A stretch of DNA of 64,000 bases from Prochlorococcus marinus str. MIT 9215 (GTDB lineage Bacteria > Cyanobacteriota > Cyanobacteriia > PCC-6307 > Cyanobiaceae), in contig NC_009840.1 of the NCBI RefSeq assembly GCF_000018065.1, forward strand, positions 1,364,001 through 1,428,000, read 5' to 3'. Below the pieces are notes generated by a model. The model saw nothing but the letters and a program-made list of their open reading frames with translations. It was not told the DNA's origin and made no database searches. This document shows, piece by piece, positions 34,984 to 47,663 of this stretch (the first letter of the stretch is position 1; every line of letters begins with the position of its first letter). A program made the translations under genes and the position numbers.

Positions 34984-35097
34984 TTATGATTTAATCTTTC
35001 TCAATTTAGGAGACTTAAAAAACATTATCTTAATACTTAAGAATAATATTGTAATTGTAAGAGCAGGCAAGATATAAAGTATCAAATCAGAACTCAT
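34984..35097 (-). CDS. Tiny membrane protein, 37 aa
   Basis: MSSDLILYILPALTITILFL plus SIKIMFFKSPKLRKIKS: one helix and a basic tail. Only composition supports it. Confidence 0.5.
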   Translation of the reverse strand: MSSDLILYILPALTITILFLSIKIMFFKSPKLRKIKS

Positions 35098-35234
35098 TAG
35101 AGAGGGAATTCTTCCAAAAATTAAATGCATGTAATAAGTCGAGAATGACATAAATTCAAATATATTTCTAATTTATTAATAGCAACTTTTTTAAATTCCA
35201 AGAACTACTTTTAGTAAAAACTAAAAATTTTTCA

Positions 35235-35279
35235 TAAAAAAGAGTCAGCCTGTATCCCTACTAGCTGACTCTAGGGATA
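35235..35279 (-). ncRNA. Candidate small RNA 3' end: hairpin with GGGATACA loop
   Basis: On the minus strand GAGTCAGC/GCTGACTC (8 bp, genomic 35242-35249 and 35264-35271) encloses TAGTAGGGATACAG and is followed by TTTTTT. A second inverted repeat TATCCCTA/TAGGGATA (35253-35260 and 35272-35279) interleaves with it, so a pseudoknot or switch is possible. No minus-strand gene ends here, so the RNA would be non-coding and start within 35280-35500, divergent from the hli pair at 35515. The loop motif recurs at 36966-36994. Confidence 0.5.
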
Positions 35280-35514
35280 TATTAATTTAAATCGCCATTA
35301 AATGAGGATTTAACCCTAAAAAAGGTGTAAGTTTTATATTTTTTTTTGTTTAAATTTAAAAATAACAGAACAAAAATAAAAACTAACAAGATAATTTTTA
35401 GATACAATAATGCAACAGTTTTGAGAATAACTCACTAAATAATCTAATTTACCACCTTTTTCTTTACATTAATAAATAAATATGTTATATTTATTAACAA
35501 ATTAAATTAACAAA

Positions 35515-35622
35515 ATGACTCCTGAAGCAGAACGTTTTAATGGTTGGGCAGCTATGTTAGGTTTTGTAGCTGCAGTTGGCGCCTACGTCACTACTGGCCA
35601 AATCATTCCAGGCTGGTTCTAA
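35515..35622 (+). CDS. hli: High-light-inducible protein (Hli), 35 aa
   Basis: MTPEAERFNGWAAMLGFVAA then VGAYVTTGQIIPGWF. The ERFNG-xAM-GF-A core is a single chlorophyll-binding LHC-type helix (E..N.R.AM, here Trp replaces Arg). Hli proteins protect photosystems and store or quench pigment under light stress. The stop and the ATG of the next hli overlap (TAATG). Confidence 0.92.
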   Translation: MTPEAERFNGWAAMLGFVAAVGAYVTTGQIIPGWF

Positions 35623-35762
35623 TGGAAAATAACCAACCAAAAATAGTAGAAAAAGAAAAAATCATTGCCGAAAGGCTCAACGGAAGATTTGCCATGTTAG
35701 GTTTTATTGCTCTAGTAGGAGCATATTTAACAACAGGTCAAATCATTCCTGGTTTTATCTAA
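35622..35762 (+). CDS. hli: High-light-inducible protein (Hli), 46 aa
   Basis: MENNQPKIVEKEKIIAERLN then GRFAMLGFIALVGAYLTTGQ and a short IIPGFI end. The canonical AERLNGRFAMLGF binds chlorophyll through Glu, Asn and Arg. Translationally coupled to the preceding hli gene (TAATG) and followed by a terminator. The same two-gene arrangement occurs on the other strand at 47404-47663. Confidence 0.94.
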   Translation: MENNQPKIVEKEKIIAERLNGRFAMLGFIALVGAYLTTGQIIPGFI

Positions 35763-35782
35763 TATTAATTTTTCATAAATTT

Positions 35783-35819
35783 AAGAGTCGAATTTAAAAT
35801 TAAATTTGACTCTTTTTTT
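35783..35819 (+). terminator. Rho-independent terminator of the hli pair
   Basis: Stem AAGAGTC-AATTT / AAATT-GACTCTT with a G/T internal mismatch, then TTTTT. Ends the bicistronic hli unit. Confidence 0.8.
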
Positions 35820-36212
35820 AATTGAATTTTTATAATTGTAAATAAATTTATTTTATTCATCGAGGTTTAATAATCCAAAATCATGCTCAAAATAAGTATT
35901 ACAACTCCTTCGCGATTAAAATAATACTATTCATAGTAATTTTATTATTATGAGATATATCGAATAGTTGACCTTATTTTAAAAAATTATTTTTGACTAT
36001 TCAGACTAAGTTTCACCGGCATAAGACTTAAACTAAGAAAGTCTAAAAATAATAATATAAAAAATTAATTTCCCAACTAGAAAAATGATGATACAAAAAG
36101 ACTAAATTTAAAAAACTACACAAAAACATTAATTTGGTTAATTTTTTGTCTTTAAGGATAAAATTTTATTTATTAAATAATGATATTTTAATTAAGTTAA
36201 TACAATGATTTT
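35820..36212. other. Intergenic region, no gene seen
   Basis: AT-rich with an imperfect inverted repeat around 36003-36043 (AGACTAAGTTT versus AAACTAAGAAAGTCT). No reading frame with a plausible start was found. Confidence 0.3.
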
Positions 36213-36344
36213 ATGAGAGTGAAGCTTGAGCCTGAGACAGCATTTATTGGTAAAAAATTTTCATTCATATTTTTAGGAATAATATTTTGTCTTAATGTCA
36301 TAGTGTTTATTTGGTTTATTTTATTCTCAAATTTAAATACATAA
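36213..36344 (+). CDS. Small membrane protein, 43 aa
   Basis: MRVKLEPETAFIGKKFSFIF then a long helix ending NLNT. Charged N-terminus (KLEPETAFIG) and one membrane span. Function unknown. Confidence 0.5.
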   Translation: MRVKLEPETAFIGKKFSFIFLGIIFCLNVIVFIWFILFSNLNT

Positions 36345-36458
36345 ATTCTGTATGAGCAGAAAATTAATTTATTTGAAATTAATTTTTAAAATAATAATTC
36401 AATAACCTAAATAATTCAATAAACTAATTTAAATGCTTTGGCCAAAGAATTTAAAAAT

Positions 36459-36474
36459 TAGCATTTAATTGCTA
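36459..36474 (-). terminator. Weak terminator at the end of the 68-aa hli gene
   Basis: TAGCA-6 nt-TGCTA on the minus strand, then ATTTTTAA. The stop codon is part of the stem. Confidence 0.35.
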
Positions 36475-36678
36475 AAAAATCCCAGGGATGATCTGGCCTG
36501 TTGTTACATAAGCTCCTAAAAGTGCAACAAAACCAACCATCGCCCATCTACCATTAACTTTTTCTGCATTTTGAGGATACCCGTCATAAGATACAGATTC
36601 ATCAATATAAGGCCTAGTTTCTGATGGAAACATATTTTGTCTACCACCTGATTCTGTTGTAACTTCTGTGTTTGTCAT
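36472..36678 (-). CDS. hli: High-light-inducible protein (Hli), 68 aa
   Basis: A longer N-terminus with Thr/Glu and a tyrosine-rich SYDGYPQNAEKVNGRWAMVG, then the helix ending TTGQIIPGIF. The AEKVNGRWAMVGF core is the Hli signature. It is a different subtype from the two-gene cassettes. A weak terminator hairpin overlaps the stop at 36459-36474. Confidence 0.93.
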   Translation of the reverse strand: MTNTEVTTESGGRQNMFPSETRPYIDESVSYDGYPQNAEKVNGRWAMVGFVALLGAYVTTGQIIPGIF

Positions 36679-36929
36679 ATATAGAGTGATAATTGTTAAC
36701 TAAAGTAACACAAATATTAACTTATGTAAACCAGATCCCTCTAATAACTCAGCTACTAGCATATTTAGATCAGAATGTGACATTTTTGCCTAAAAATTAG
36801 AAGCATGCATCTCCTTTGATTAATTTTTTGCCTAATTTTCAGGCATAATAAAAAATTGAGCATTTATACTCACAATAAGTAATTTTGCCTATTAAAATAT
36901 ATCTAGCATTTAGGAAGTGCTTAGCTGGT

Positions 36930-37004
36930 TATAGTAAGAAAACCTTAATTTAACCTGTTCGTCATGAGCTTGCCTGTGGGATACATGCAAGCTCTTTCAA
37001 TTTT
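36930..37004 (+). ncRNA. Candidate small RNA with GGGATACA-loop hairpin
   Basis: Plus-strand stem GAGCTTGC/GCAAGCTC (36966-36973 and 36987-36994) with loop CTGTGGGATACAT, followed by TTTCAATTTT. No gene lies upstream on this strand for 600 bp. It is divergent from the hli gene at 36472-36678, just as the similar hairpin at 35242 is divergent from the hli pair. 5' end unknown; the given start is approximate. Confidence 0.5.
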
Positions 37005-42643: not shown

Positions 42644-42727
42644 TGCAGTTCCTGAACTTGCTCAAGTCCCCGTCCTATGGCTTGAGTCGTACTGCGGTCT
42701 ATCAGATGGTAGATCGGACGATTTTCT
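42644..42727 (+). ncRNA. Candidate structured RNA, GC-rich
   Basis: An abrupt rise in GC in the middle of a 600-bp AT-rich gap (42348-42955). Stem 1: CTCAAG (42661-42666) with CTTGAG (42681-42686). Stem 2: CGGTCTAT/GTAGATCG-type 8-bp helix with two G-U pairs, inside an outer TCGT/ACGA, followed by TTTTCTAG. This resembles a small RNA with a terminator-like 3' hairpin. It does not match tmRNA, SRP RNA or tRNA. Confidence 0.5.
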
Positions 42728-47345: not shown

Positions 47346-47384
47346 AATAAAAAAAGTCAACCTGCACAACAAGCTGACTTTTAG
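47346..47384 (-). terminator. Terminator of the minus-strand hli pair
   Basis: On the minus strand AAAGTCAGCTT...AGGTTGACTTTTTTT: stem AGTCAG(C)/(G)TTGACT with a loop GTTGTGCA, then T-run. Placed 20 bp after the second hli gene. Confidence 0.75.
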
Positions 47385-47403: not shown

Positions 47404-47547
47404 TTAAATAACTCCAGGTACAATCTGACCAGTTGTTATATATGCTCCCACTAAAGCTATTAGGCCAACAAGAGCAAATCTGCCATTTAATTTCTCTGCT
47501 TTCGTTTTTTGAGGGTCGATGTTTCTTGATTGATTTTGATTTTCCAT
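47404..47547 (-). CDS. hli: High-light-inducible protein (Hli), 47 aa
   Basis: MENQNQSRNIDPQKTKAEKL then NGRFALVGLIALVGAYITTG and QIVPGVI. AEKLNGRFALVG is the Hli core (Leu at the usual Met). Second gene of a pair coupled by TAATG, like 35515-35762. Followed by a terminator. Confidence 0.93.
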   Translation of the reverse strand: MENQNQSRNIDPQKTKAEKLNGRFALVGLIALVGAYITTGQIVPGVI

Positions 47548-47663
47548 TAAAAAATACCTGGAATAAGTTGGCCAGTCGTTACATATGTTCCCACTAAGAG
47601 CATGAAAGCCATCATTGCTGGTCTTCCAATGGCTCTATCGAGAATGTCTTTATTTGAGTCCAT
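47547..47663 (-). CDS. hli: High-light-inducible protein (Hli), 38 aa
   Basis: MDSNKDILDRAIGRPAMMAF then MLLVGTYVTTGQLIPGIF. Diverged core DRAIGRPAMMAF (Glu and Asn of the usual E..N.R replaced). First gene of the pair; its TAA overlaps the next ATG. A perfect 9-bp hairpin with GAAA loop (47737-47758) lies upstream. Confidence 0.9.
   Translation of the reverse strand: MDSNKDILDRAIGRPAMMAFMLLVGTYVTTGQLIPGIF

What the first reader, a model, noticed from the sequence alone, without database searches (positions are those of the whole stretch)
35235..37004. Two hairpins with the same GGGATACA loop, each divergent to an hli unit
Minus-strand hairpin 35242-35271 lies upstream of the plus hli pair, and plus-strand hairpin 36966-36994 upstream of the minus hli gene. 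Stems differ but loops share GGGATACA, a sign of a functional RNA family. The first also has an interleaved second stem (pseudoknot or switch).
Basis: partly seen in the sequence, partly recalled or inferred. Interest (0 to 1): 0.6.

Follow-up and report, generated by a model that had tools for sequence, protein, structure and literature searches.

The report
Shared RNA hairpin at light-stress genes
In the ocean's most abundant photosynthetic bacterium, a small RNA hairpin with a fixed loop sits beside or at the end of many light-stress (hli) genes and, with its usual flanking sequence, matches in mirror image the start of the mRNA for a core photosystem protein, which suggests an unrecognised RNA link between photoprotection and photosystem building.

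Summary
Hairpin 2 is the 3' hairpin of Yfr20, a known Prochlorococcus sRNA. Hairpin 1 is unannotated; its stem and loop are kept in relatives, the proposed interleaved stem is not. A covariance model of the hairpin found 65 distinct copies in 16 genomes of the genus; 61 lie within 700 nt of an hli gene, many at hli operon 3' ends. It hit 60 of 60 near-complete genomes of the genus, but only at chance level in 235 genomes of other genera and in 80 viral hli loci. Stems covary while the loop GGGAUAC stays. Most copies (not hairpin 1) also carry UCGUCAUGA just before the stem. Both segments are complementary, in the right order, to psbD (photosystem II D2) mRNA: GUAUCCC in the leader and CUCAUGACGA over the start codon, in 15 of 15 genomes of the genus; five cyanophage psbD genes lack both. 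Best reading: Yfr20 and hli mRNA 3' ends are one trans-acting RNA family controlling D2 translation. The family and its hli link are well supported; the psbD pairing is an untested prediction, strong in energy for one class, weak for Yfr20.

The parts
35236..35272 (-). Hairpin 1 (class A element): terminator-like hairpin, loop UAGUAGGGAUACAG, U-tail
   Evidence: R1 hit 35271-35238, 55.1 bits (this copy is among those the model was built from); stem and loop kept in the 19 loci aligned; fold z -5.1
35252..35258 (-). GGGATAC loop core of hairpin 1
35279..35309 (-). Conserved block (ATCCTCATTTA...TTAATAT) ending 6 nt before hairpin 1; probably its promoter with a -10-like TTAATAT, so the RNA may be little more than the hairpin (inferred)
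   Evidence: alignment of 19 loci: conserved block, then a variable spacer of nearly constant length
34984..35151 (-). Conserved 55-aa ORF, start 110-115 nt downstream of hairpin 1's loop in 12 of 12 loci with enough sequence; no Pfam or NCBIfam match
35515..35762 (+). hli pair (35 aa and 46 aa), divergent from hairpin 1
   Evidence: weak Pfam PF00504 matches below cut-off
36213..36344 (+). 43-aa ORF like the ORF that in MED4 stands before Yfr20, reported there as cotranscribed with it
   Evidence: identity of the MED4 ORF with PMED4_15791 inferred from position
36472..36678 (-). hli gene (68 aa), divergent from Yfr20
36904..36998 (+). Yfr20 sRNA (RF02367; model match 36904-36993) with tail
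   Evidence: 91.8 bits against gathering 44, model 1-89
36959..36968 (+). TCGTCATGAG, complementary to the psbD start-codon region CTCATGACGA
   Evidence: letters 2-7 unpaired in the predicted fold, the last three in the stem
36966..36994 (+). Hairpin 2: 3' hairpin of Yfr20, GGGATAC at 36978-36984
   Evidence: R1 hit 36966-36998, 47.3 bits (this copy is among those the model was built from)
47350..47380 (-). Degenerate copy of the element directly after another hli pair (47404-47663 minus); stem kept, loop motif lost
   Evidence: R1 16.8 bits, E 0.027; sequence; hli at this place

Best explanation
The two hairpins belong to one family of 3'-terminal RNA elements of high-light-adapted Prochlorococcus. 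The full form is a largely unpaired UCGUCAUGA(G), then a terminator hairpin whose loop holds GGGAUAC. It ends the sRNA Yfr20 and the transcripts of several hli operons; hairpin 1 is a short form without the UCGUCAUGAG segment. Proposed mechanism: when light stress raises hli and Yfr20 transcription, these 3' ends (as the sRNA or as mRNA 3' UTRs) base-pair with the psbD mRNA at two places, GGGAUAC with GUAUCCC in the leader and UCGUCAUGAG with CUCAUGACGA over the AUG, and so control, most likely reduce, translation of photosystem II D2. Shown here by sequence: the family, its covarying stem and fixed loop, its link to hli genes, its restriction to one genus within what was searched, and the ordered two-part complementarity. 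From the literature: Yfr20 is transcribed and light-induced in MED4. Inferred: the pairing in the cell, its effect and sign, and any release of free RNA from hli 3' ends. For hairpin 1 only the 7-nt loop match to psbD applies, so its target is much less certain.
For: Stem covaries while the loop is fixed, on 21 representatives of classes A, Y and C: 99.4% of cells paired, 6 of 8 pairs with changes on both sides, 25 such cells against a shuffled mean of 5.0, 0 of 500 shuffles as high. R1: 3 strong hits in this genome, next E 3.3; hits in 60 of 60 genomes of the genus at least 95% complete. 61 of 65 distinct hits in 16 genomes lie within 700 nt of an hli gene, although only 6.2% of this hli-rich window does. 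TCGTCATGA stands upstream in 71 of 80 distinct elements sorted into classes Y, C, D, E. Of the 12 intergenic GGGATAC/GTATCCC sites in the genome, one is the psbD leader; apart from the elements' own antisense strands it alone also holds the 10-nt complement, over the start codon and in the right order. Both target motifs in 15 of 15 genomes of the genus. The class C element pairs with psbD better (-14.4 kcal/mol) than with any of 1000 random windows or 238 other start windows, sites with GGGATAC or GTATCCC kept out of the random set. Four loop variants seen (GGGAUGC, GGGGUAC, GGGAUAU, GGGAUGU) still pair with GUAUCCC through G.U. Yfr20 was the only ncRNA raised in the dark to high-light shift, one asRNA apart (PMC2518516, passages).
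Against: No experiment here. For Yfr20 predicted pairing with psbD is unremarkable: -8.7 kcal/mol, matched by 45 of 1000 random and 10 of 238 start windows (10 of 288). Access is only partial in the predicted folds: in Yfr20 the last letters of GGGAUAC and of UCGUCAUGAG are paired, and most of GUAUCCC is paired in the psbD leader. The psbD motifs are older than the elements: of 31 psbD leaders of other genera read, 11 have GTATCCC and 6 have both, yet no convincing element was found in those genera. The psbD transcription start is not known to me, so that GUAUCCC is in the mRNA is inferred. Class A and RNA-D lack UCGUCAUGAG, and class A keeps a longer loop than psbD pairing needs. Some copies break the pairing: loops GUGAUAC, GGCAUAC, GAGAUAC; Yfr20 of G215 has lost GGGAUAC; TCGTCATGA is missing in 4 of 6 class D copies. 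One covariation measure, further pair types, is not unusual (45 of 500 shuffles as high). psbD transcripts follow light (PMC2663038, passages), so repression is not obvious. Only about 280 kb of the genome was scanned for rival targets.
Confidence: 0.45

Rival explanations
1. The element is a protein-binding site: an RNA-binding protein (for instance an RRM protein) reads UCGUCAUGAG and the GGGAUAC loop and sets the stability of hli mRNAs, and Yfr20, made in quantity at high light, titrates that protein away.
For: Fixed loop on a covarying stem at the 3' ends of hli mRNAs plus an abundant sRNA with the same module; two RRM matches over cut-off in this genome; variants that break psbD pairing exist.
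Against: Does not explain why both conserved segments are the ordered complement of the psbD start region. CsrA, the classical GGA-loop binder (recalled), has no match over the cut-off in this genome.
Confidence: 0.27
2. Plain terminators: hli genes multiplied together with their 3' ends, and the loop is alike by common descent or gene conversion only.
For: hli are multi-copy paralogues; the element is a terminator-like hairpin after several of them.
Against: Stems have changed at most pairs while the loop has not; Yfr20, hairpin 1 and RNA-D carry the loop without being the 3' end of an hli gene. The copy in this window whose loop did decay (47350-47380) shows that a hairpin after hli can do without the loop motif.
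Confidence: 0.13
3. Hairpin 1 acts in cis as an attenuator in the leader of the downstream 55-aa ORF.
For: Same strand, ORF start 110-115 nt downstream in 12 of 12 loci, conserved sequence between.
Against: No conserved alternative stem; the same loop occurs at loci without this ORF; a putative -10 lies directly before the hairpin, and the ORF may have its own promoter (both inferred).
Confidence: 0.1
4. The loop mainly serves loop-loop contact with another hairpin, RNA-D (genome position 439428), whose plus strand would show GUAUCCCUUA.
For: RNA-D loop letters identical in 29 of 29 matched relatives; 8-9 complementary letters.
Against: In two relatives (L286, L288) RNA-D stem changes keep pairing, as G.U, only on the minus-strand RNA, whose loop reads GGGAUAC like the others (by eye), so it looks like a fourth same-sense member.
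Confidence: 0.06

Closest known systems
Yfr20 (RF02367), Prochlorococcus MED4 sRNA
   Same: Hairpin 2 is its 3' hairpin; position 1336435-1336523 reported for MED4 equals the hit in G015.
   Different: The Rfam model and the passages I read treat Yfr20 alone; the shared 3' module at hli operons, hairpin 1 and the psbD complementarity are not in those passages.
ApcZ, the 3'-end-derived sRNA of the Synechocystis apc operon (PMC8136909, abstract and section list seen)
   Same: 3' end of a photosynthesis operon acting in trans on translation of a light-related gene.
   Different: One operon and a different target (ocp); here 1-6 copies per genome share one module, joined by a stand-alone sRNA, and the link runs from photoprotection genes to a photosystem core gene. 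ApcZ is tested, this is not.
Yfr2 family sRNAs of Prochlorococcus (PMC6778093, passages read)
   Same: sRNA family with conserved motifs; pull-down in MED4 enriched psbA and psbD RNA.
   Different: Other motif and structure as I recall it; almost universal in cyanobacteria; no hli in that paper's text (0 occurrences).

Membership tests
Yfr20 (RF02367): hairpin 2 | Full-length match over the gathering score | tested here: met
   91.8 bits against 44, model 1-89
Yfr20 (RF02367): hairpin 2 | Transcript of about 89 nt, induced at high light | not testable with these tools
   reported for MED4
Yfr20 (RF02367): hairpin 1 | 5' hairpin, central helix, UCGUCAUGAG and terminator hairpin | tested here: not met
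   no RF02367 match at E up to 5 there; only the 3' hairpin is shared
Terminator hairpin family with GGGAUAC loop (model R1) | 8-bp covarying stem, GGGAUAC loop, U-tail | tested here: met
   both hairpins are among the sequences the model was built from; independent copies found in other genomes
3'-UTR-derived trans-acting sRNA | Lies at the 3' end of a coding transcript and ends in its terminator | tested here: inconclusive
   position fits for classes C, D, E; transcripts not seen; hairpins 1 and 2 are not at hli 3' ends
3'-UTR-derived trans-acting sRNA | Base-pairs with a target mRNA and changes its translation | not testable with these tools
   ordered complementarity to psbD only
CsrB/RsmZ-type decoy | CsrA homologue in the same genome | tested here: not met
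   best PF02599 match E 0.29, below cut-off

The most novel reading that the evidence does not exclude
High-light Prochlorococcus runs a distributed sRNA regulon: the 3' ends of several light-stress hli mRNAs and the sRNA Yfr20 carry one interchangeable antisense module that pairs across the psbD start codon, so that making photoprotection mRNAs by itself tunes D2 synthesis; cyanophage psbD genes, which in the five read lack the target, and cyanophage hli loci, which in the 80 searched lack the module, stand outside this control during infection.
Probability: 0.38. Interest if true: 0.87.

Novelty: new variant of a known kind. Interest (0 to 1): 0.72.

Why it matters
Why high-light Prochlorococcus keeps 15-24 hli-like matches per genome (five genomes, weak matches included), how they are coordinated with so few regulators, and what Yfr20 does are open. 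A shared 3' RNA module aimed at psbD would make hli mRNAs regulators as well as messages and would couple photoprotection to photosystem II building in a dominant ocean phototroph. All Prochlorococcus genomes are said to have a single psbD where all Synechococcus sequenced by then had two (PMC3441193, passages), so control after transcription would be a natural replacement. It also gives a testable reason why cyanophages bring their own psbD with another leader.

Tried and rejected
Pseudoknot or switch of hairpin 1: partner not conserved. CsrA decoy: no CsrA over cut-off. Phage origin or sharing: two pattern scans of viral contigs gave 9 hits, none of which scores with the model at E up to 1, and 0 hits; 80 viral hli loci, the best 80 of at least 593 for one 68-aa hli query, some cut short, gave nothing better than E 0.21; the shorter phage hli types were not searched (one search failed). 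Outside the genus 4 of 235 genomes gave marginal hits (E 0.013-0.045), which is chance level; that search used strict filters and can lose weak copies. Coding reading of AUGAG in Yfr20: frame and length not kept between clades (by eye). A plain duplex scan ranked psbD 14 of 6392 windows, self matches included, because the stem dominates; replaced by a two-segment scan, where psbD came second (Yfr20) and first (class C) after the elements' own antisense among 18532 windows; the better Yfr20 window lies inside a long ORF. Literature: searches for Yfr20 with Prochlorococcus, Yfr20/22/25/27, psbD with sRNA, hli or high-light-inducible with terminator, UTR and sRNA and HliR1 listed no paper whose title or abstract start tells of hli 3' ends or Yfr20 acting on psbD; only open-licence papers are held, and the ISME J 2014 transcriptome paper I asked for (DOI from memory) is not.

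Full report
What is there. The window lies in a closed 1,738,790-base genome, whose size I recall as that of Prochlorococcus MIT9215. Both hairpins exist as described. Hairpin 2 is the 3' hairpin of a full-length Yfr20 (RF02367, 36904-36993 plus, 91.8 bits). Yfr20 is known from MED4: 89 nt, own promoter, abundant, in an island near hli11 and hli12, and the only ncRNA raised on a dark to high-light shift (PMC2518516, passages read); its listed decay rate is 2.0 min (PMC2897979, passages). In 99 genomes searched, Yfr20 was over the cut-off in 42, all of one genus. Hairpin 1 matches no Rfam family at E up to 5 on its strand (the overlapping STnc410 row, E 0.82, is on the other strand).

Conservation. 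Directly upstream is a conserved block ending in TTAATAT, then a variable spacer of nearly constant length, then the hairpin. I read this as a promoter giving an RNA of roughly 40 nt; that is inference. A conserved 55-aa ORF follows on the same strand (12 of 12 loci with enough sequence), so a leader reading stays open.

The family. Yfr20 loops of some relatives, MED4 among them, read CTAGTAGGGAT, as in hairpin 1, and weak Yfr20 hits in four genomes were a third class at the 3' end of an hli operon. On 21 representatives of the three classes the 8-bp stem covaries strongly while the loop is fixed; four of five measures beat all 500 shuffles, the fifth (further pair types) does not (45 of 500) (caveat: related sequences inflate such counts, and the classes need not be homologous). 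A model of this hairpin gives three strong hits in this genome and nothing more above chance. In 251 genomes of the family it hits 16 genomes of the same genus 3-6 times each, and 4 of the other 235 at chance level (strict filters). In the genus, 60 of 60 genomes at least 95% complete have 1-6 hits.

Link to hli. I took the 66 listed hits of the 16 genomes, dropped one that is the antisense of another, and looked at the neighbours of all 65: 61 have an hli gene within 700 nt (15 of 15; 45 of 50 plus one by ORF map). Exceptions: Yfr20 in two genomes (1071 and 1748 nt), the class A copy in MED4 (984 nt), and G275:C6:37980 (none near). Arrangements: A and Y divergent from hli; C, D, E and the degenerate F at the 3' end of hli transcripts, sometimes after a further small ORF. 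Not every hli unit has one: the census found 19 hli-like matches in this genome against three full elements and one decayed copy (47350-47380). Of 113 distinct elements collected (Y 48, A 26, C 20, D 6, E 6, unsorted 7, of which one is a chance hit from another genus), TCGTCATGA stands upstream in 46 of 48 Y, 18 of 20 C, 2 of 6 D, 5 of 6 E and 0 of 26 A.

A fourth hairpin. Of 68 GGGATAC sites in the genome one more sits in a strong hairpin, at 439428, away from hli (RNA-D). Its loop is identical in 29 of 29 relatives that matched out of 31 searched, and a pattern scan found the exact 26-mer in at least 119 contigs; of the 80 rows shown, 77 are named Prochlorococcus, two Synechococcaceae and one a Rhodobacteraceae MAG. 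Two relatives keep the stem by G.U pairs only on the strand with the GGGAUAC loop (by eye).

The target. Of the 68 sites, 12 are intergenic by a simple ORF test. One of them is GTATCCC in the leader of psbD, and 17 nt later comes CTCATGACGA, with the psbD start codon (Met-Thr-Ile-Ala-Val-Gly) inside. This is the ordered complement of UCGUCAUGAG and GGGAUAC. The psbD site was not sought; it came out of a listing of all sites. By my arithmetic a second 10-nt match within 45 nt of any of eight non-element sites has a chance of about 3 in 10,000 under equal base use. Both target motifs are in 15 of 15 genomes of the genus that were read. In 15 psbD leaders of other genera, 7 have GTATCCC and 5 have both; of 20 more fetched, 16 could be read, 4 have GTATCCC and 1 has both. 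So the target is older than the element. Energetically the class C element is outstanding (0 of 1000 random windows, 0 of 238 start windows as good) but Yfr20 is not (45 of 1000, 10 of 238), and in the predicted folds parts of both the element and the psbD site are already paired. Five cyanophage psbD leaders, of 425 phage records with a match, have neither motif, and 80 viral hli loci have no element.

Reading. I am confident of the RNA family, its constraint and its hli association. The psbD mechanism is the best single account of why just these letters are kept and makes sharp predictions, but it is untested, energetically weak for Yfr20, broken in some copies, and for hairpin 1 rests on seven letters; I give it 0.45. 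A protein-binding 3' element is the main rival.

Noticed in passing
window 42661-42723, minus strand: Glutamine-II riboswitch aptamer (RF01704), 58.4 bits against gathering 33.
   Followed up: no
window 47350-47380, minus strand: Decayed copy of the element right after a second hli pair; stem kept, GGGATAC loop lost.
   Followed up: partly
L067:1487-1520 (own genome about 439428): RNA-D, a hairpin with loop UAAGGGAUAC invariant in 29 of 29 relatives, not near hli; function unknown.
   Followed up: partly
L164 (G215, about 1057614): A class D element and its hli unit lie divergent next to what reads like a psbA gene (by eye).
   Followed up: no
L062 and L065 (own genome 370197-370219 and 391682-391704): Two places each with GGGATAC twice, 16 nt apart, in near-identical surroundings; look like duplicated sequence.
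   Followed up: no
L096:1527-1573 (psbD leader): The psbD leader is predicted to pair CUGCG.AUC with GAUCGCAG of the first codons, so the element site overlaps a possible leader stem; that fold is no better than shuffles (z 0.95).
   Followed up: no
window 36904-36920 plus: The 5' hairpin of Yfr20 (AGCAUUUAGGAAGUGCU) is also nearly invariant in relatives and unexplained.
   Followed up: no
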